From Thalassiosira profunda (lineage: Eukaryota; Bacillariophyta; Thalassiosirophyceae; Thalassiosirales; Thalassiosiraceae), in the NCBI GenBank assembly GCA_036939355.1, contig JALLAP010000148.1:1-17946 (forward strand): a DNA stretch of 17,946 bases, read 5' to 3'. The position numbers and the translations under genes were made by a program. Numbering within the stretch: position 1 is the stretch's first letter; each line of letters opens with the position of its first letter. The notes beneath the pieces are model-generated. The model ran no database searches. It saw nothing but the letters and a program-made list of their open reading frames with translations, and was not told the DNA's origin. Positions 3,951-15,803 of the stretch are shown here, piece by piece.

Positions 3951-3977
3951 GATGGGCTGCTGCTTCAGGCGCAAGAC
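3951..3977 (+). other. Partial copy of the ctpA start region
   Basis: These 27 bases match 14321-14347, the first codons of ctpA, at 25 of 27 positions, including an uninterrupted 16-base identity. Both copies begin at an ATG and encode MG-x-x-FRRKT. Here the frame runs MGCCFRRKTVTAAAVAIGAW and then into a telomere-like repeat, with no mature protease sequence following. It could be a decayed duplicate of the ctpA 5' end, or a leader shared by several genes. An ORF spanning it (3874-4140) is too poor to call a gene. Confidence 0.5.
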
Positions 3978-4025
3978 AGTGACCGCTGCGGCGGTGGCGA
4001 TTGGCGCTTGGGCGTACTCAAGAAG

Positions 4026-7869: not shown

Positions 7870-7905
7870 TGCATCTTTCTGCATCTTTGTGCATCTGTAA
7901 ATCTC
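7870..7905 (+). promoter_or_regulatory. TGCATCT triple repeat, former ctpA promoter
   Basis: TGCATCT occurs at 7870, 7880 and 7890, exactly 10 bp apart, giving a roughly one-helical-turn phase. Before the retrotransposon inserted, this block lay about 40-75 bp upstream of the ctpA ATG. TGCATC/GATGCA hexamers are frequent in the host part of the window and occur near other starts (308-313, 17714-17721). A core-promoter role is inferred. Confidence 0.4.
7901..7905. repeat. Target-site duplication, left copy
   Basis: ATCTC directly precedes the left LTR and is repeated at 14278-14282 directly after the right LTR. Five bp is the usual duplication size for Ty1/copia integrases. Confidence 0.9.
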
Positions 7906-8184
7906 TGTTAAAAATAAACCCCTCTCACGGCCGGATCATCGGCCTAGCGCGAGATATCGGGCACCATGCAATTGACTTCGTAACCACAGATTCTATCAAA
8001 GAAGTGAGAGGAGGCGAGGAGGCTCCGATGAGCCCTCAACGCTCCTCTCATCTTGCTGTTATCTACGTATCTTGCTGAGTCAGCGACTCACGACTCGCTT
8101 CCACGTGAAGCTAGTATGGCGATCATACTCGCCATCAGTCGCGCGGACGAAATCGTGCTTGCTCGAAGCACTCTTCGCCCAACA
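7906..8184 (-). repeat. 3' LTR (279 bp)
   Basis: This copy is identical base for base to 13999-14277 by direct comparison. It starts TGTTA and ends CAACA on the plus strand. In element orientation it is the 3' LTR because the coding frame reads leftward into it. Confidence 0.95.
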
Positions 8185-8252
8185 CACTCCTGCGGTCTTC
8201 GCTCGGCCCTCGGCCTGAGCGTATGACCGTTTAATTACTAATTGGCAGCCGT

Positions 8253-11200
8253 CTAGGCTGCCGCCGCTGCACTTGCTGGTCCCAACGTTTCGTCTGGCCA
8301 GGTGAGAGGGCAGTTCATCATGTGACTGCGGTCGACGCGGAACGGAGTCCCTTGCTTGGGCTTCGTGTTCATGTCGATCCACATCTCCTCCGTCGGCTTG
8401 TACGTCACGGCGACCTCGCCCTGCTCGATCTTGTCCTTCACGAAGAAGTACTTGACCTTGATGTGCTTCGTCCGCTTGCTGCTGGACATCTTGCCGTTCC
8501 TCTCGAGAAGAATGGCACTCTTGTTGTCTTGGAAGATCTCCGCGTGCGTCATGTCGTACCCCTGCTCCTGGATGAAGTACAGGCTCCACAGGACCTCGGA
8601 CATCGCGTCGTCCACTCCGACGAGCTCGGTCTCGGTCGAGCTCTTCGTGTTGATCTTCTGCTTCCGAGAGAAGCTAATCACGGCTCCCTTGCCGAGCGTC
8701 ATTCCGGCGCCGGTTTGACCTTTGCAGTCCCAGTGCACCGCGTGGGACGCGTCGACTGCCCACGTTGCACTCGTCAGCTTGTCCACTGTCAGTCGCAACG
8801 GAAGCGTCCGCGTGCCCTTCAAATACCGCAGGACCCGCTTCAGCTTTCCCCAGTCGTCCTCGTCCGGCTTCTTCACTCGCGTGGTGAGGAAAGCCACCGC
8901 CGTCTGGATGTCTCGCCGAGCTCGCGACGAGAGGAAGAGGAGCTGTGCCACGGAGTGGTGGAACATCACGGCCTGCTCTTCGGGCAGGTACTTCGCTTCG
9001 TCCTCGTCTCGGACCTTGAACAGGTGGTCCGCGTGCGGCGTCGGAGCACTCTTGGTGATCTCCTCGGGGAAATCCTCGTGGATTTTGTCGATGTACGGCA
9101 CCATCGATACCTTGAACACCCCGTCCTCGGAGTAGTCGATATCCATTCCGAGGTAGTCGTGCTTCTTGCCTCGGTGCACCACAATCTTGTCGCCGTAGAA
9201 TCCCTTCAGGTAGATCAACAGCTTCGTCACCTCGAAGCTGTCAGCGCACGAGATCTTCAGGTCGTCCACGTGCCACAGGACGGTCATTTGGCCGCTCGGT
9301 GTCTCCATGTTGGCGACGCACGGGTCGTACGGATTGATGCTGAATCCGTAGTCGAGCAGCTCCTGCTTGAGCTTGCGGTAAAACAGCAGAGCCGACCTCA
9401 ACAGGCCATACAACGACTTGTACAGTTGCACGTACAGAATGGGCTTGCCTCGGCCGTCCCTCGTCACGTACTTGCGGTACAGCTTCGGGTTCACCTTCAC
9501 CATCAGCTCCGCGAGCTCGCCCCGCAGCGCCATGATGATGTGCTCGTCCGTTAGGGTGTGGAGGAACGCGCCGGGCAGGTCGCACGTTGCAACGTCTCGC
9601 TGTTCGTGGGCGTCGATCGCCCCCGTGATGAAGATCGAGTTCGTTGCCACGGTCGGCGAGGAAGCGTCCTCCTTCCTGATGTACTCGCGCTGGGGCGCAC
9701 CGTTGATGCACGTTCGTCCCTTGATGGACTCGTCCCGCTTCTCCTTCAGGAAGATAAGCGACGCCAGCGCCTTCCGGCGCTCTTCTTTCGATAGCGACCT
9801 CGCGTCGCGCGGGAAGAAAGCGTCCATATCGTGGAGTTGGCGCATTTCCTTCATGGCGCCCTCCTCGGCCCGCTCTCGGCCGAACTGCTTAATGCCCTGC
9901 TTCATACTGAGCTGGGCCATGATGATGCCGACCAGCTGAACCTCGTCCTCGTGGACGAGCAGCGGCGCTGTCCCGTCGTCCGACTCCTCGTCGGTCAGGG
10001 AGCACGTGGACTCGGTGCGCTCGTCGTCCTCCAGCGGGCGGATGCTCACGAGCCCGCCGCATGCCGCCTTCACCGCTTGGGCGTCAAACAGGCTCGGACA
10101 CATGATGTGGATCCGGTTTGGTGCGGCATTCTTGTCGGTGCCGCTGGGCTCCGATGCGGCATCGGAGTCGTCGTCCGCGGCGCTCGCCGCGACGTTCATG
10201 TATCGCTCGTCCTCGCGGAAACGAGGTTGGGTCCGCATCCCCGCGTTCTCCCGGGCGCTGCGTCGCTGACCCTCGGCCGCTTCCGCTGGCTCTTCGACAA
10301 ACTCGTCGGGGTCGAGCGCGTCCTCGAAGTCGGCGGACTCGTCGGATTCGGACTCCTCGGCGGGATCGTAGTCCTCGTCGTCCGAGGAATCGTCCTCATA
10401 CTCGAGCTCTGGCGCCGCCTCATCGTCGGAATCGGGGTGCACGACATTCACGTTGAACGTGATGTTCTGTTCGTTGCCCCCGTCCACTCCTGCATTTCCG
10501 CCTTGGCCCAGGAGCGACCTCGCTCTGGGTCCAAAATCGGCGTTCTCGGCGGCGGCCGCCGCCCTCTCCGCTAGGGACGGCTCGGGGTCGTCGATAACGG
10601 CGGGCGTACCCTCGAGCCCCTCGTAGTCCGACTCCATCGTCACTCCTGGCATCTCGGCCGGGATGTCGGGGTACGGCGCATGCTCGGGCTCGGGCGCGTT
10701 GTCCTCGATGAGGATCTCGCCCTCCTCGTCCGTCCAATCGAACGGCTGGTTGTTTCGGTCGCAGAAGCGGAGCCGTCCGCTCCGCTGGTCGCGGCGGCCC
10801 CACCGCTCGACCTTCCTCTTGATGCTTTCGGGCATCGGGTACTCCCTGAAGTCGCGGCGCTTCACGAACTTCCCCGTCCGCAGGGACAGGAACTTGTAGG
10901 AGCCCTGCCTGTTCCCCGTCGGTCCGCAGCAGATCGCGTCTTGGCTCCGCTCCTCCTGCGTGTTGGTGATGCTCGGGTCCTCAAAGGCCTGGCAGAAGCT
11001 TCCGAACTGCCCCCGCATGTGGTTCTTCACGCTCAGCTGCCACCGCAGCACCAGCTGACGGGGCGAGTAGACCTCCGAGATGCCCTGGGGGTCCACGTAG
11101 GCGTTGATGAACATGACGGCGTTCCTGACCAGCTCCTTGATGAGCTGATTCGGGAGGATGTCGAACGGCATGTCGGCCTGGATGCAGCGGCACCGCTCCT

Positions 11201-13958
11201 TGACATAGCGGATCTTCCGCTCGATCTCGCCCACGTGCTCGTTCTTGGCCGTGGTGTTGATGACGATCATGTCCCGCGTCTTCTCCTTGATCTTTTCGAA
11301 CTCGCCGTCCATGAGGGCGGTCTGGCAAAGGAAGCCGGCGCGTCGGTAAAGCTTAACAACATCAATTAGAGCATTACCCAGCTCGGCCTTAGACCTACGG
11401 GGGACGAACTGAACGGTCAAGAATCTTATCTTCCTCGAAAGGGTGATCAAGAATGGCAAGCCGCTCACGAACATCACATCCGCCACCAGCGTCACGAGCT
11501 TGTGCCTCTCAACGACGCTGGCGGGGATGGAGTCGTACTCCGTTTCTACCCTTTCGGGTTTACTCCGAACCCATTTGCCTTTTGCACACGGAAGCGATGG
11601 TCCGAAGATTGCGTCGGCATTAGAGATGTCATCAGTGTTGATGGGACAATCTCGAAACAGGGAGCTTTCGCTCTTACGACTCACCTCCTTCTTGTAGGCG
11701 GCCGTGCTGGGATGCCCCGCCCTGGCTTGGAGCTTCCTCGCGAGGTAGGCCCGCTGGACCTCCTTCTTGGTGTACCCCTCGAAGTTCTTGCGGATGGTCT
11801 GCTGTATCAGCATGGCCGAGTCATCGGCGTCGATGCCGATCTGCAGCAGGTACGCCGAGGGGTCCTCGCCGAGGGACTCCTGAGGCTTCCCCTGGGGCTC
11901 CTCCTGGGGCTCCTCCTGGGGCTCCTCCTGGGGCTCCTGCTCCGCGCACTCCTGGGGTTCCACCTCGGCCGCCTCCTCGGCGGCGTGGAGCTCCTCGGCG
12001 GCGCTGTGGATGAACTGGGTGGCGGCGCCGCCATCCTCTTCGGATAGGTCCACGTACGGGAAGCCCGTCCTGGGGCAGCGCTTGAACACGGCTTCGCCCG
12101 CAGGGGTGTGGCAGATGAACGCCCCGCCCCTCTCGGTGCTCTTGTACTCCACCGTGCCCATCGCCTCCAGCTGCTTGAGGGACACGACGTTCGCGATCCC
12201 CTCGCGGTCCAGCCAGAACCTGGTCTTGCCGAAGTACCCCTCCTCGGAGGTGGTGCTCGGCCCTCCGTTGGTCTGGAGGGTGAGCGGTTTGTCGGCCTTG
12301 CCGACGTCGGTAAGGTGGTCGGCCACCACCATCTGGTTGTCGGTGGTGCACGTGTCGAGGTAGAGCCAGTCCTTGTTGAGGGTGGAGGACTTCTTGACCT
12401 CGCCGCCGCCTTGGAAGAGCGTGGCCCCCGACGCCTCGGCGTCGTCAGCCACGTTCAGCAGCTGGGCGCGGATGCCCTGCTTCTGCTCGGCGGTCAGCTT
12501 GGGGCAGTCCTTCATGGCGTGGCCCCCTCCGCAGTGCATGCAGTTGAGAGGCTTCCCGCTCGGAGCCTCGGGCTTGGCGGCCTTGCGCGCCTGCCTCTTC
12601 TGCTGAGCGGGGGCCGATGGCTGATCGGGCTGCCCGCCCTGGGCGGCGCTCGCGTAGCTCTTGGCCTGCTTCTTCTGGGCCGTCCCCTTGGACATCATCA
12701 TGTTCACCCCCTCGGGGGCGTCGCCGTCCGTCTCGGCGGCGGCGTTGTCGGCGTCCTCCCCGGCCTGCATGAAGTTGAGGCCGTCCTCGGCGTCGTCATC
12801 GGCGGGGGGAGCCTGGTATCGCCCCTCGTTGCGGGGCTGGCGGTGCCTCGCCTTGGCGGTCTGGAAGTTGTCCATCATGGACAGCAGCTCGTTGCAGTCG
12901 CGGGGGTAGTTGTTCTGCTTGCCCACCGCGAAATCGTTGCTGCACTTCTCTTTGAGGCGCCAGTGCCGACCGTCGTCGGCTCCGCTCAACATGAAGGCGG
13001 CCTTGGATTCGTTTTCGACCTCGACGGTCGCCCGCGCCACATCGGCTGGAGTGGGAGCTGGATTGCCGTCGGCGCCCAGATGGGCCTCCTCCTCGGCTAT
13101 GGCCCTCGCCCGGTCGGCGATGAGCCCCGGGTGGCGGGTGATGCAGCCCCCTTGCTGCTCGATGGCGTCGAAGTGTCCCTCGATGCGCTCCTTCCACGCG
13201 GCGTTGGCCTCTTTGGGCCCCTGCACGTCCGTCAGCACGATCTTGATCATCTCGGCCATGCTCCAATTGGGCTCCTGGTGGGCCTCCCGGCCGCACACGA
13301 TGTTCCTGATCTCGTCGAGGAGGGCGATGGGGTTCTTGGCCCGATCGAAGGTGTCGTAGTTGGGCACTGCCTCCAGCTTGCTCCTCACGACCTTGGAGCA
13401 CTGCTCCCAGATCGTCTCATACGCGGCGACGAGGTCCTTCGCCAGGTCGTCGCGCTTCTTGGGCACGCGCTTGATCTCGCCCTCCCAGATGAGCACGGCT
13501 CCACGGTTGGACCGCTCCTCGGGGATGAACTGCCCCTGGTTGTCGGGGTCAGGCACCATGTTGGGGACGGGAGGACCGTTTGGGTCGTTGGGGTTCGGCA
13601 CCATCACCGGCAACGTCGCCGGCGGTTCGGCCGGTTCGGTGATGGTGGGGAGCACGCCCGCCTCTAGCGCGTCTGCCACCAGGATACGCTCGTCCCCGCC
13701 TTCACGGCGGAGGTAGGCGATGACCGCCTTCTTCGTCCTCTCGTACTGGGCCGCGTGCTCGGGCCTCCCGCACTCAAACACGTCCGTCTTGATGGCGGTG
13801 ATGGCCGACACGTGCGCCTTTGGTTTGTTGGCCTTCCCTCGGCCTCCTCTCTTCCCCCCTCCGCGTCCTCCGCGGCCTTCTCCTCCACGGCCTGCACGGC
13901 CGTCTCCACCTCGGCCTGCACGGCCTCCTCCTCGGGCGGGTGCACCCCGTCCGCTCAT
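8253..13958 (-). CDS. Gag-Pol polyprotein of copia-type retrotransposon
   Basis: The frame encodes 1901 aa from the ATG at 13958 (A at -3); a GTG-led extension to 13985 is not a credible start. Residues 2-42 are an Arg/Gly-rich tail. Gag follows to about 375, then a zinc knuckle at 473-485 (CMHCGGGHAMKDC) spaced C-x2-C-x3-H-x4-C, one residue shorter than usual. The protease active site is LDTCTT, with D535 and Cys where Gly is normal. Integrase catalytic residues are D827, D884 and E913; its N-terminal zinc domain keeps only scattered ligands (GHPST, LPCAKGK). An acidic linker lies near 1175-1220. Reverse transcriptase carries D1460 and HVDD at 1563-1566, and RNase H D1736 with E and D near 1772 and 1810. 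There is no frameshift between gag and pol, so Gag excess must arise by processing or another route. The stop is TAG. Confidence 0.93.
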   Translation of the reverse strand: MSGRGAPARGGGRAGRGGDGRAGRGGEGRGGRGGGKRGGRGKANKPKAHVSAITAIKTDVFECGRPEHAAQYERTKKAVIAYLRREGGDERILVADALEAGVLPTITEPAEPPATLPVMVPNPNDPNGPPVPNMVPDPDNQGQFIPEERSNRGAVLIWEGEIKRVPKKRDDLAKDLVAAYETIWEQCSKVVRSKLEAVPNYDTFDRAKNPIALLDEIRNIVCGREAHQEPNWSMAEMIKIVLTDVQGPKEANAAWKERIEGHFDAIEQQGGCITRHPGLIADRARAIAEEEAHLGADGNPAPTPADVARATVEVENESKAAFMLSGADDGRHWRLKEKCSNDFAVGKQNNYPRDCNELLSMMDNFQTAKARHRQPRNEGRYQAPPADDDAEDGLNFMQAGEDADNAAAETDGDAPEGVNMMMSKGTAQKKQAKSYASAAQGGQPDQPSAPAQQKRQARKAAKPEAPSGKPLNCMHCGGGHAMKDCPKLTAEQKQGIRAQLLNVADDAEASGATLFQGGGEVKKSSTLNKDWLYLDTCTTDNQMVVADHLTDVGKADKPLTLQTNGGPSTTSEEGYFGKTRFWLDREGIANVVSLKQLEAMGTVEYKSTERGGAFICHTPAGEAVFKRCPRTGFPYVDLSEEDGGAATQFIHSAAEELHAAEEAAEVEPQECAEQEPQEEPQEEPQEEPQGKPQESLGEDPSAYLLQIGIDADDSAMLIQQTIRKNFEGYTKKEVQRAYLARKLQARAGHPSTAAYKKEVSRKSESSLFRDCPINTDDISNADAIFGPSLPCAKGKWVRSKPERVETEYDSIPASVVERHKLVTLVADVMFVSGLPFLITLSRKIRFLTVQFVPRRSKAELGNALIDVVKLYRRAGFLCQTALMDGEFEKIKEKTRDMIVINTTAKNEHVGEIERKIRYVKERCRCIQADMPFDILPNQLIKELVRNAVMFINAYVDPQGISEVYSPRQLVLRWQLSVKNHMRGQFGSFCQAFEDPSITNTQEERSQDAICCGPTGNRQGSYKFLSLRTGKFVKRRDFREYPMPESIKRKVERWGRRDQRSGRLRFCDRNNQPFDWTDEEGEILIEDNAPEPEHAPYPDIPAEMPGVTMESDYEGLEGTPAVIDDPEPSLAERAAAAAENADFGPRARSLLGQGGNAGVDGGNEQNITFNVNVVHPDSDDEAAPELEYEDDSSDDEDYDPAEESESDESADFEDALDPDEFVEEPAEAAEGQRRSARENAGMRTQPRFREDERYMNVAASAADDDSDAASEPSGTDKNAAPNRIHIMCPSLFDAQAVKAACGGLVSIRPLEDDERTESTCSLTDEESDDGTAPLLVHEDEVQLVGIIMAQLSMKQGIKQFGRERAEEGAMKEMRQLHDMDAFFPRDARSLSKEERRKALASLIFLKEKRDESIKGRTCINGAPQREYIRKEDASSPTVATNSIFITGAIDAHEQRDVATCDLPGAFLHTLTDEHIIMALRGELAELMVKVNPKLYRKYVTRDGRGKPILYVQLYKSLYGLLRSALLFYRKLKQELLDYGFSINPYDPCVANMETPSGQMTVLWHVDDLKISCADSFEVTKLLIYLKGFYGDKIVVHRGKKHDYLGMDIDYSEDGVFKVSMVPYIDKIHEDFPEEITKSAPTPHADHLFKVRDEDEAKYLPEEQAVMFHHSVAQLLFLSSRARRDIQTAVAFLTTRVKKPDEDDWGKLKRVLRYLKGTRTLPLRLTVDKLTSATWAVDASHAVHWDCKGQTGAGMTLGKGAVISFSRKQKINTKSSTETELVGVDDAMSEVLWSLYFIQEQGYDMTHAEIFQDNKSAILLERNGKMSSSKRTKHIKVKYFFVKDKIEQGEVAVTYKPTEEMWIDMNTKPKQGTPFRVDRSHMMNCPLTWPDETLGPASAAAAA
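11891..11938 (-). repeat. 12-bp tandem repeat encoding EEPQ
   Basis: Four exact copies of CCTGGGGCTCCT on the plus strand encode repeated Glu-Glu-Pro-Gln on the minus strand, in the spacer between protease and integrase. Copy number may vary between element copies. Confidence 0.85.
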
Positions 13959-13982
13959 CTTCACGATGACACACAAAGAATG

Positions 13983-13998
13983 CACTTCTTTGATAGAA
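13983..13998 (-). other. Primer-binding site complementary to own LTR
   Basis: The 16 nt adjoining the 5' LTR read TTCTATCAAAGAAGTG in element orientation. They lack the TGG expected opposite a tRNA CCA end. They are a perfect complement of an LTR segment (14083-14098; 17 bp if the terminal LTR base is included). The same LTR segment is at 7990-8006 in the other LTR. Position and complementarity match the self-primer site of Tf1-type elements. Confidence 0.6.
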
Positions 13999-14277
13999 TG
14001 TTAAAAATAAACCCCTCTCACGGCCGGATCATCGGCCTAGCGCGAGATATCGGGCACCATGCAATTGACTTCGTAACCACAGATTCTATCAAAGAAGTGA
14101 GAGGAGGCGAGGAGGCTCCGATGAGCCCTCAACGCTCCTCTCATCTTGCTGTTATCTACGTATCTTGCTGAGTCAGCGACTCACGACTCGCTTCCACGTG
14201 AAGCTAGTATGGCGATCATACTCGCCATCAGTCGCGCGGACGAAATCGTGCTTGCTCGAAGCACTCTTCGCCCAACA
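13999..14277 (-). repeat. 5' LTR (279 bp)
   Basis: This is the upstream LTR in element orientation, identical to 7906-8184. An initiator-like TCACTTC lies at about 14094-14100 on the minus strand, placing a likely transcript start near 14098. U3 would then be about 178 bp, and R plus U5 about 100 bp. Confidence 0.95.
14155..14200 (-). promoter_or_regulatory. Likely U3 enhancer cluster in the LTR
   Basis: The segment combines TACGTA (near 14157), a hairpin palindrome TGAGTC-AGC-GACTCA (14169-14183) containing an exact GCN4/AP-1 type TGAGTCA, and a CACGTG box (14195-14200) flanked by CTTC/GAAG symmetry. These are bZIP and bHLH target consensus sequences. They lie about 60-100 bp upstream of the inferred transcript start, where LTR enhancers are expected. 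The same sites occur in the other LTR (TGAGTCA at 8076). Function is inferred. Confidence 0.4.
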
Positions 14278-14282
14278 ATCTC
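14278..14282. repeat. Target-site duplication, right copy
   Basis: ATCTC directly follows the right LTR and matches 7901-7905 exactly. Confidence 0.9.
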
Positions 14283-14321
14283 CCCCACATCTCATCTCGT
14301 CCTCTCGCCGAGGACCAAACG

Positions 14322-15803
14322 ATGGGCAGCAGCTTCAGGCGCAAGACGGCGGCGACGGCGGTGATGCTGCTTGCAATCGAAGGCGCAGCCTTCGCTCCAC
14401 CTCCACCCCGCGGCGCCCTCGCCCGTTGCAATCCCAGAATACGCCCGCGTTGCAACGCGCTGCAGCAAACGAGTGCCAACGATGTCTCGGACATAGCGTC
14501 GCGGCTGCAGCGAGGCGTCGCCTCTATAAGTACATCTGCTGCAATTATCGCCGCGACGCTCTTCTCCCCGCTCAGCATCCACGTCGACCAACAGATCCCA
14601 CATGCACCGTCATTATCGATAGAGCGCTCGCGAGCGTTGGCGCTGACGGAAAACCAGCAGTTCGTTGCCGATGTGTGGTTCGCCGTCAGCGCACAATACT
14701 TCGACCAGTCCTTTAATGGGCTGGGCGAGGAGGGATGGCAGGCAAAAGAGAAGGAGGCGATACAGGCCGTGGCCGATACGGGCCCTGACGATGAGGTAGT
14801 GGTTGAGAGTGCAATCAAGACGATGCTCTCGGCGCTGGACGATCCCTACACGAGATATCTGCCGCCGCAAAAGTACGAGGCGCTGACGGCGTACGCCACC
14901 GGCCGGAGCAGTGCGGGCATAGGTGTGCAGCTGTTGGAAGATCCTAGAACGAAGAACGTAATGGTGATGGCCACAACGGCCGGAGGCCCGGCGGAAAAGG
15001 CCGGCGTGCGCGCGGGCGACGTCATACTCAAGATTGACGGGGAAAGCATGGAGGGAGCGTCGGCCGAGGAGGTCGCGGCCAAATGCCGAGGCGAGTCGGG
15101 AGGGAAGGTAGATGTCGATTATTTGCGCATGGGCGAGGATGGGAAGAAGAAGGATGCAAAGGAGGAGCATGTGACGCTGACGAGAGCGGTGATCAATGCA
15201 AACCCGATACAGGCATCGACGTTTGTTTCTGATAACGGCAAGAGGGTGGGAATGCTGCGGGTGCCGTCATTTAGCACAGAAACGGTGTCGCAAATGGTGG
15301 ACGCGCTCCGCTCGGTGGAAGATGACAAAGTCGATGCCATTGCAATCGACATTCGTGGCAATGTGGGCGGCTACATGCCCGCGGGGGTCGATGCCGCGAA
15401 GTTGTTCCTACCAGCAAGAGCCCACATTATAGCGGAGGTTGGCAAATCCGGCTCCTCTGTGAAAACGTACGACGCCGAAGGAATTGGGGCGGAGACGTCC
15501 CTTCCAGTATACCTCTTGGTGGACAAGCGAACGGCCAGCGCGTCAGAAATCTTCGCGGCCGCTTTGCAGGACAACCGACGCGCATTCGTTGTGGGCACCA
15601 CCAACACCTTTGGCAAGGGGCGGATACAGAACGTTCAACCCCTCGAAAACGGAAGTGGGGTGGCTGTCACTCGCGCTAGATACATCACGCCGAGAGGGAG
15701 GGATATCCACGGCGTTGGCATCCAACCAAACAAGAAGCCGGGGAGGTGCGAAGCCAATGATTCAGCAAAGCTTTGCCTCTCGGACATTGTGGACGTGTAT
15801 TGA
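14322..15803 (+). CDS. ctpA: Plastid C-terminal processing protease (CtpA, S41 family)
   Basis: This 493-aa intronless gene encodes the serine endoprotease that trims the C-terminal extension of precursor D1 (PsbA) in the thylakoid lumen, needed to assemble the photosystem II manganese cluster. Residues 1-23 form a signal peptide, followed by AAFAP (22-26), the secondary-plastid import motif with Phe at the cleavage site. A second hydrophobic stretch (about 68-86) fits a thylakoid transfer signal. The family N-domain (110-185) is followed by a PDZ domain (196-270) and the S41 core. By alignment with E. coli Prc and plant CtpA, the Ser-Lys dyad is S406 in TASASEIFAA and K432 in TFGKG, with one extra residue between them. 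The usual NNPGG motif reads RGNVGG (345-350). A retrotransposon LTR ends 44 bp upstream of the ATG, displacing the native promoter by about 6.4 kb. Confidence 0.92.
   Translation: MGSSFRRKTAATAVMLLAIEGAAFAPPPPRGALARCNPRIRPRCNALQQTSANDVSDIASRLQRGVASISTSAAIIAATLFSPLSIHVDQQIPHAPSLSIERSRALALTENQQFVADVWFAVSAQYFDQSFNGLGEEGWQAKEKEAIQAVADTGPDDEVVVESAIKTMLSALDDPYTRYLPPQKYEALTAYATGRSSAGIGVQLLEDPRTKNVMVMATTAGGPAEKAGVRAGDVILKIDGESMEGASAEEVAAKCRGESGGKVDVDYLRMGEDGKKKDAKEEHVTLTRAVINANPIQASTFVSDNGKRVGMLRVPSFSTETVSQMVDALRSVEDDKVDAIAIDIRGNVGGYMPAGVDAAKLFLPARAHIIAEVGKSGSSVKTYDAEGIGAETSLPVYLLVDKRTASASEIFAAALQDNRRAFVVGTTNTFGKGRIQNVQPLENGSGVAVTRARYITPRGRDIHGVGIQPNKKPGRCEANDSAKLCLSDIVDVY

What the first reader, a model, noticed from the sequence alone, without database searches (positions are those of the whole stretch)
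13983..14099. Self-priming signature in a Ty1/copia-type retrotransposon
The 16 nt next to the 5' LTR (TTCTATCAAAGAAGTG in element orientation) perfectly complement an LTR segment at 14083-14098; counting the last LTR base the match is 17 bp. A chance match of this length within one 279-bp LTR at exactly this position is extremely unlikely. No TGG for a tRNA CCA end is present. An initiator-like TCACTTC places the inferred transcript 5' end at the edge of the complementary segment, as in yeast Tf1, where the RNA's own 5' end folds back to prime cDNA. Self-priming is known best from the Ty3/gypsy Tf1/sushi group, so it would be unusual in a copia/CoDi-like element.
Basis: partly seen in the sequence, partly recalled or inferred. 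Interest (0 to 1): 0.8.

Follow-up and report, generated by a model that had tools for sequence, protein, structure and literature searches.

The report
Self-priming copia retrotransposon in a diatom
A jumping gene in a diatom appears to start copying its RNA into DNA with a fold-back piece of its own RNA instead of a borrowed cell tRNA, a trick best known from a different class of elements in fission yeast.

Summary
None of 2,000 LTR shuffles gave more than 10. No tRNA held from the host assembly matches more than 7 nt in a row.

The decisive new evidence is a second intact element in the same genome (C371; pol 59% identical over residues 1327-1899). Its post-LTR sequence differs, yet pairs for 14 bp with the same place of its own LTR: 6 of 13 shared pairs changed on both sides. 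Three LTRs of the clade share CTCA-N12-AATCT, framing a 15-nt primer. Two other copia elements of this genome match tRNA-Met or tRNA-Ile anticodon arms instead.

Best reading: Tf1-like self-primed reverse transcription in a CoDi-like diatom element. Not shown: transcript 5' end, RNase H cut, cDNA. Self-priming is already predicted for plant TAR copia elements, so this is a new variant of a known kind.

The parts
7906..14277 (-). Whole Ty1/copia-type LTR retrotransposon, 6,372 bp
   Evidence: Identical LTR pair and matching 5-bp flanks; RVT_2 in the long ORF
13999..14277 (-). 5' LTR, 279 bp, TG...CA
7906..8184 (-). 3' LTR, identical to the 5' LTR
   Evidence: no differences in 279
14278..14282 (.). 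Target-site duplication, 5' side (GAGAT in element orientation)
7901..7905 (.). Target-site duplication, 3' side (GAGAT in element orientation)
13983..13998 (-). Primer-binding site (inferred), complementary to the element's own LTR; begins at the first base after the LTR
14083..14099 (-). LTR segment that pairs with 13983-13999 (17 bp); the inferred 15-nt self-primer is 14084-14098
   Evidence: fold
14098..14101 (-). CTCA shared by three LTRs of the clade; its A (14098) is the inferred transcript start (inference)
   Evidence: LTR alignment
14081..14085 (-). AATCT shared by three LTRs; inferred RNase H cut between 14084 and 14083 (inference)
8185..8193 (-). Putative polypurine tract GCAGGAGTG before the 3' LTR; same 9 bases in C371 and C849
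   Evidence: Read
8253..13958 (-). Single gag-pol ORF from the first in-frame ATG (13958); the mechanical ORF list starts it at GTG 13985
   Evidence: ATG read
9066..9740 (-). Copia-type reverse transcriptase (RVT_2), residues 1416-1640
   Evidence: E 5.3e-12

Best explanation
The element primes reverse transcription with its own RNA. Transcription is inferred to start at the A of CTCA in the LTR (14098). The first 15 nt of the transcript fold back and pair with the 15 nt directly after the 5' LTR. The element's RNase H is inferred to cut after nt 15 (AA|UCU), leaving a 3'-OH exactly opposite the last LTR base, from which minus-strand synthesis copies U5 and R. When the plus strand copies the primer, the next copy's binding site is made from the primer, so one LTR mutation changes both partners at once. 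Shown: the complementarity, its exact place, its upkeep through two-sided changes in a diverged relative, the lack of a good match among the tRNAs held, and the predicted fold. Inferred: transcript start, cleavage, priming and the copying step.
For: 17-bp match, 0 of 2,000 shuffles, maximum 10. C371: 14-bp match at the same place of a quite different sequence, 0 of 2,000 shuffles, maximum 12; 6 of 13 shared pairs changed on both sides, 7 unchanged. Aligned LTRs of C148, C849 and C371 put the segment in the same columns, each with CTCA before it and AATCT across its end, primer length 15 in all three. Predicted RNA fold from the inferred start pairs primer with binding site at probability 0.92 or more at 12 of 15 positions in each of the two elements. 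No contiguous tRNA match over 7 nt (window) or 8 nt (C371). Control elements of the same genome: C661 matches 13 nt of a tRNA-Met, C61 14 nt of tRNA-Ile with one mismatch, and C661, C282 and C61 show no self-match over 7 nt starting within 5 nt of the LTR edge (of C661's LTR only 103 nt were seen).
Against: No transcript, cleavage or cDNA data. In C371 the first two nt of the inferred 15-nt primer do not pair, so the primer there may be 13 nt or the start may differ. The window's whole-leader fold is only mildly more stable than shuffles (z -1.92; 7 of 200 at least as stable). The two extra duplexes of the Tf1 'pretzel' found no support. The binding site can form a competing local hairpin. Only two elements have both partners readable. 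The tRNA set is incomplete, and with one mismatch allowed 10-nt matches occur for both elements, one of them for C371 at the LTR edge to the antisense strand of a tRNA stretch.
Confidence: 0.85

Rival explanations
1. The element uses a tRNA or half-tRNA primer like other copia elements, and the LTR match is incidental.
For: Half-tRNA-like sites exist in other copia elements of the same genome; the assembly's tRNA set is incomplete (for example no tRNA-Tyr among the 42 sequences).
Against: Longest contiguous tRNA match 7 nt (window) and 8 nt (C371), neither starting at the LTR edge; with one mismatch at most 10 nt. No TGG at the site. Self-match is 17 and 14 bp starting exactly at the LTR edge in both.
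Confidence: 0.04
2. The two segments form a structural stem of the leader (packaging, dimerisation or translation control), or a 5'-3' panhandle with the same segment in the 3' LTR, and do not prime.
For: The predicted fold forms the stem as a closing helix; the segment also lies in the 3' LTR (7991-8006).
Against: A stem alone need not begin at the first base after the LTR in both elements, nor fill the place where a primer site must be while no other primer site is seen (inference).
Confidence: 0.08
3. Primer is supplied between two RNA molecules, or from the 3' copy of the segment, rather than by fold-back of one RNA.
For: The same segment is present near both ends of the transcript if it lies in R (inference from LTR identity).
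Against: Fold-back pairing is predicted at high probability in one RNA; the known precedent Tf1 uses the mRNA's 5' end (PMC10085805 passages).
Confidence: 0.03

Closest known systems
Tf1/sushi group (Ty3/gypsy chromoviruses), e.g. Tf1 and Tj1 of fission yeasts
   Same: Primer-binding site directly after an LTR ending in CA is complementary to an LTR segment at the (here inferred) transcript 5' end (PMC10085805, PMC4600332, passages)
   Different: Polymerase is copia-type (RVT_2); primer about 15 nt instead of 11 (Tf1 figure recalled); no support for the two extra pretzel duplexes
TAR lineage of plant Ty1/copia (Houba, Osr-1)
   Same: Copia elements for which self-priming is predicted from LTR complementarity (PMC6317226, passages)
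   Different: Land-plant hosts; no TAR sequence was compared here, so relationship and geometry are untested
CoDi elements of diatoms
   Same: Diatom host and copia pol; named relatives from Cyclotella, Thalassiosira, Conticribra and Cyclostephanos
   Different: In Maumus 2009 (PMC2806351) 'tRNA' does not occur and 'PBS' only as the buffer (12 of 15 places seen); how other CoDi elements prime was not seen in print
Fungal GalEa copia with Conserved Hairpin Site
   Same: Lack a tRNA-type primer site and have a hairpin at that place; put in branch 1 of copia together with Ty and CoDi-like clades by PMC5445492 (passages)
   Different: Its authors never found an LTR segment complementary to the site; here there is one

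Membership tests
Ty1/copia (Pseudoviridae) | RVT_2-type reverse transcriptase | tested here: met
   E 5.3e-12, 46.3 bits over a 31.6 cut-off; at E 0.1 or better in 21 of 21 aligned members
Ty1/copia (Pseudoviridae) | Integrase before reverse transcriptase | tested here: inconclusive
   No integrase hit in the window protein. In relative P0001 SH3_retrovirus (919-975, below its cut-off) lies before RVT_2 (1322-1450), the copia order
Ty1/copia (Pseudoviridae) | TG...CA LTRs and 5-bp target duplication | tested here: met
   shared with other LTR elements, so not specific
CoDi group of diatom copia | Clusters with CoDi reference elements | not tested
   No named CoDi references at hand; the species-named relatives among the 120 listed are diatom proteins
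Tf1/sushi self-priming elements | Post-LTR site complementary to the transcript's 5' end | tested here: inconclusive
   Complementarity to the LTR met; the transcript 5' end is only inferred
Tf1/sushi self-priming elements | Ty3/gypsy chromovirus polymerase | tested here: not met
   Copia-type RVT_2; no gypsy-type RT or chromodomain among the families hit
Tf1/sushi self-priming elements | Three-duplex pretzel leader | tested here: inconclusive
   Central duplex predicted; extra duplexes no better than shuffles (202 and 231 of 300 as low in the window, 257 and 69 of 300 in C371), but the test is crude for short duplexes
Half-tRNA primed copia (hemivirus type) | Post-LTR site complementary to an internal tRNA stretch | tested here: not met
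   At most 7 contiguous nt in an incomplete tRNA set; positive control C661 gives 13

The most novel reading that the evidence does not exclude
Self-priming is the normal mode of this whole CoDi-like clade, separate from Tf1/sushi and from plant TAR elements. It uses a fixed 15-nt primer framed by an initiator (CTCA) and a cut motif (AATCT), whose letters drift freely because each round of replication copies the primer into the binding site. That would mean self-priming arose more than once, or is older than tRNA priming in copia elements.
Probability: 0.5. Interest if true: 0.72.

Novelty: new variant of a known kind. Interest (0 to 1): 0.58.

Why it matters
Self-priming was demonstrated in Tf1 and has since been implicated in other elements (PMC4600332, passages). 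A diatom copia clade with the same layout, and with both partners changing together, is comparative evidence that the mechanism works outside gypsy. One diatom genome also holds half-tRNA-like copia sites, so self-primed and tRNA-primed copia elements could be compared in one cell. It bears on whether tRNA priming came late in LTR-element history, as suggested in PMC3601003 (passages). It also has a practical side: a diatom repeat annotation kept only LTR candidates with a recognised primer-binding site (PMC7466962, passages), a filter that could discard self-primed elements (inference).

Tried and rejected
The phage collection gave no match. No other copy of the C849 LTR turned up, so its 5' end seems absent from the assembly and its pairing cannot be checked. 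Pretzel duplexes: no support. A genomic source of the 16-mer outside the element: none exact; 8 places with 2 mismatches against 5 for the reversed-pattern control. Other reverse transcriptases (RVT_1) of this genome were listed (18 matches) but their priming was not examined. A profile of 21 relatives against solved structures hit 7 sequences at E 0.01 or better: MPE1 and several retroviral gag or nucleocapsid chains, and the Copia VLP protein (E 0.0052), but no polymerase.

Rows dropped and gaps: the RT tree left out C534, C514 and C1207 as too short and C680, which was not extracted, and used 20 of the 120 listed relatives; it flags long branches for C61, C282 and C570, so only the grouping of C148, C849 and C371 with 7 other relatives (support 99/92) is used. 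Of 11 contigs with copia RT (12 hits), an LTR pair and post-LTR site could be read in 5 (C148, C371, C282, C661, C61); C570 and C1207 were read by motif only, without an LTR pair; C849 has one LTR; C534, C680 and C514 gave none. The LTR of C661 is cut by the end of the fetched stretch. In the wider scan C661 has a 9-nt self-match 28 nt downstream of its LTR edge. Of the 46 tRNA matches, 2 were not fetched by themselves: C1108:8957 is seen within L035, and C931:2299 should lie in the flank of L026.

Full report
WHAT IS THERE. The window holds a 6,372-bp LTR retrotransposon on the minus strand, 7906-14277, with two identical 279-bp TG...CA LTRs and GAGAT on both flanks. Identical LTRs point to a recent insertion. 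One long ORF (8253-13985, first ATG read at 13958) encodes gag-pol with a copia-type reverse transcriptase (RVT_2, E 5.3e-12). The neighbour gene at 14322-15803 is an S41/CtpA-type peptidase whose best named relative is from Thalassiosira sp. AJA248-18 (71% identity), and pol relatives with species names come from Cyclotella, Conticribra, Thalassiosira and Cyclostephanos. The host is therefore most likely a Thalassiosirales diatom; the assembly has 21.8 Mb in 1,366 contigs.

THE MATCH. Directly after the 5' LTR comes TTCTATCAAAGAAGTG (13983-13998). It is the exact reverse complement of LTR bases 14084-14099, and 17 bp counting the last LTR base (14083-14099). No shuffle of the LTR reached more than 10 (0 of 2,000 reached 17). 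Within the element, start offsets 16-179 give at most 10.

A SECOND ELEMENT SHOWS CO-CHANGE. A search of the same genome found a second full element on C371 (LTRs 251 bp, identical, 5-bp duplication GCCGC), with 59% identical pol over residues 1327-1899. Its post-LTR sequence, TTGCCTAATAAAAGG, is unlike the window's, yet pairs for 14 bp with its own LTR, again starting at the last LTR base (0 of 2,000 shuffles, maximum 12). Comparing the two over the inferred 15-nt primer, 13 pairs are standard in both; 6 of these changed on both sides and 7 are unchanged; the two at the primer's 5' end do not pair in C371. A third element, C849 (74% identical pol over residues 724-1901), has one LTR but its 5' partner was not found in the assembly.

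A SHARED FRAME. Aligned by MAFFT without regard to pairing, the three LTRs place the segment in the same columns. Each has CTCA just before it and AATCT across its end, so that from the A of CTCA to the inferred cut inside AATCT there are 15 nt in all three. If the transcript starts at that A, the primer is the first 15 nt of the RNA, and its 3' end lies opposite the base before which copying must begin. The start and the cut are inferences. The distance from inferred start to LTR end is 100 nt in the window, 67 in C371 and 101 in C849. Predicted folds from the inferred start form the primer-site helix, at probability 0.92 or more for 12 of 15 positions in each element. For the window the whole leader is only mildly more stable than shuffles (z -1.92), for C371 clearly so (z -4.81).

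PHYLOGENY. In a tree of 27 RT segments, C148, C849 and C371 lie in one group (support 99/92) with 7 other relatives; C371 pairs with P0020, and C148 with C849. The two elements with readable pairs are thus not nearest neighbours, which suggests that the group's ancestor already had the trait (inference). The elements with half-tRNA-like sites (C61, C282, C570, C661) fall outside; the tool flags the branches of C61, C282 and C570 as long and the joins as possibly false.

THE tRNA TEST AND INTERNAL CONTROLS. tRNA genes were taken from the same assembly: 46 matches, 30 with loci and 16 short stretches fetched (two of these repeat earlier ones). They gave 42 distinct sequences and 4 stretches without an ARAGORN call, which were scanned raw on both strands. 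The set is not complete. Within 20 nt after the LTR the window's site matches at most 7 nt in a row and C371's at most 8, neither at the LTR edge; with one mismatch both reach 10, in C371 once from the LTR edge to the antisense strand of a tRNA stretch. Other copia elements in this genome behave differently. C661 matches 13 nt of a tRNA-Met anticodon arm, C282 8 nt of the same, and C61 14 nt of tRNA-Ile(AAT) with one mismatch at the first anticodon base; C570 and C1207 carry the same two motifs. C61's mismatch is the one expected if A34 is edited to inosine, as described for plant Bianca elements (PMC6317226, passages). C661, C282 and C61 have no self-match over 7 nt starting within 5 nt of the LTR edge.

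WHY BOTH SIDES CHANGE TOGETHER. Under self-priming the plus strand copies the primer to make the next binding site, so one LTR change alters both partners in one round (inference from the general replication scheme, recalled). Free drift of letters with kept complementarity is what this predicts.

WHAT IS KNOWN. Self-priming was found in Tf1 and is described for the Tf1/sushi group (PMC10085805, passages; PMC4600332, passages). In copia it has been predicted for the plant TAR lineage (PMC6317226, passages). Fungal GalEa elements, grouped with CoDi-like clades in one copia branch, have a hairpin at the primer place and no LTR complement (PMC5445492, section 10 and passages). In the paper that defined CoDi (PMC2806351) the word tRNA does not occur and PBS only as the buffer (passages). 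A search for self-priming, retrotransposon and diatom returned two papers, neither of which, in the passages seen, reports it for a diatom element. Titles and abstract starts listed by the searches (20 of 223 shown), 50, 57, 61 and 62 name no such report either. This library lacks most subscription papers, so absence from print is not shown.

VERDICT. The finding is confirmed and strengthened. It works like Tf1 priming in layout but is not a member of Tf1/sushi. It is a new variant of a known kind; the mechanism remains to be shown at the bench.

Noticed in passing
C61 (L064) and C1207 (L066, position 140 on +): Copia elements whose post-LTR site GTTTATCAGACCCA (C61) matches the tRNA-Ile(AAT) anticodon arm except at the first anticodon base, as if paired to inosine-34; like plant Bianca elements, here in a diatom. 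C1207 was found by motif only.
   Followed up: partly
C661 (L062), C570 (L061), C282 (L060): Copia elements with half-tRNA-Met-like primer sites (GGTTATGAGCCC); C282 has one extra base within it, C570 was found by motif only.
   Followed up: partly
window 14277-14322: The element ends 44 bp upstream of the start codon of an S41/CtpA-type peptidase gene, head to head with it, so it may alter that gene's promoter.
   Followed up: no
window 14322-15803: The peptidase protein is also listed, 100% identical, on a contig of 1,389,754 bases (P0121), so a longer assembly of this or a very near genome may exist in which the missing C849 5' end could be read.
   Followed up: no
window 3951-4003 and 14321-14373: Two copies, 75% alike, of a 53-bp stretch; the second is the start of the peptidase gene, possibly a shared targeting-peptide start.
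   Followed up: no
window 13974-13992, minus strand: The binding site can also form a local 7-bp hairpin with the bases after it (CAAAGAA/TTCTTTG), which could compete with the primer.
   Followed up: partly
window 11877-11936: Four overlapping 24-nt copies at 12-nt spacing within the pol ORF, a short tandem repeat in coding sequence.
   Followed up: no
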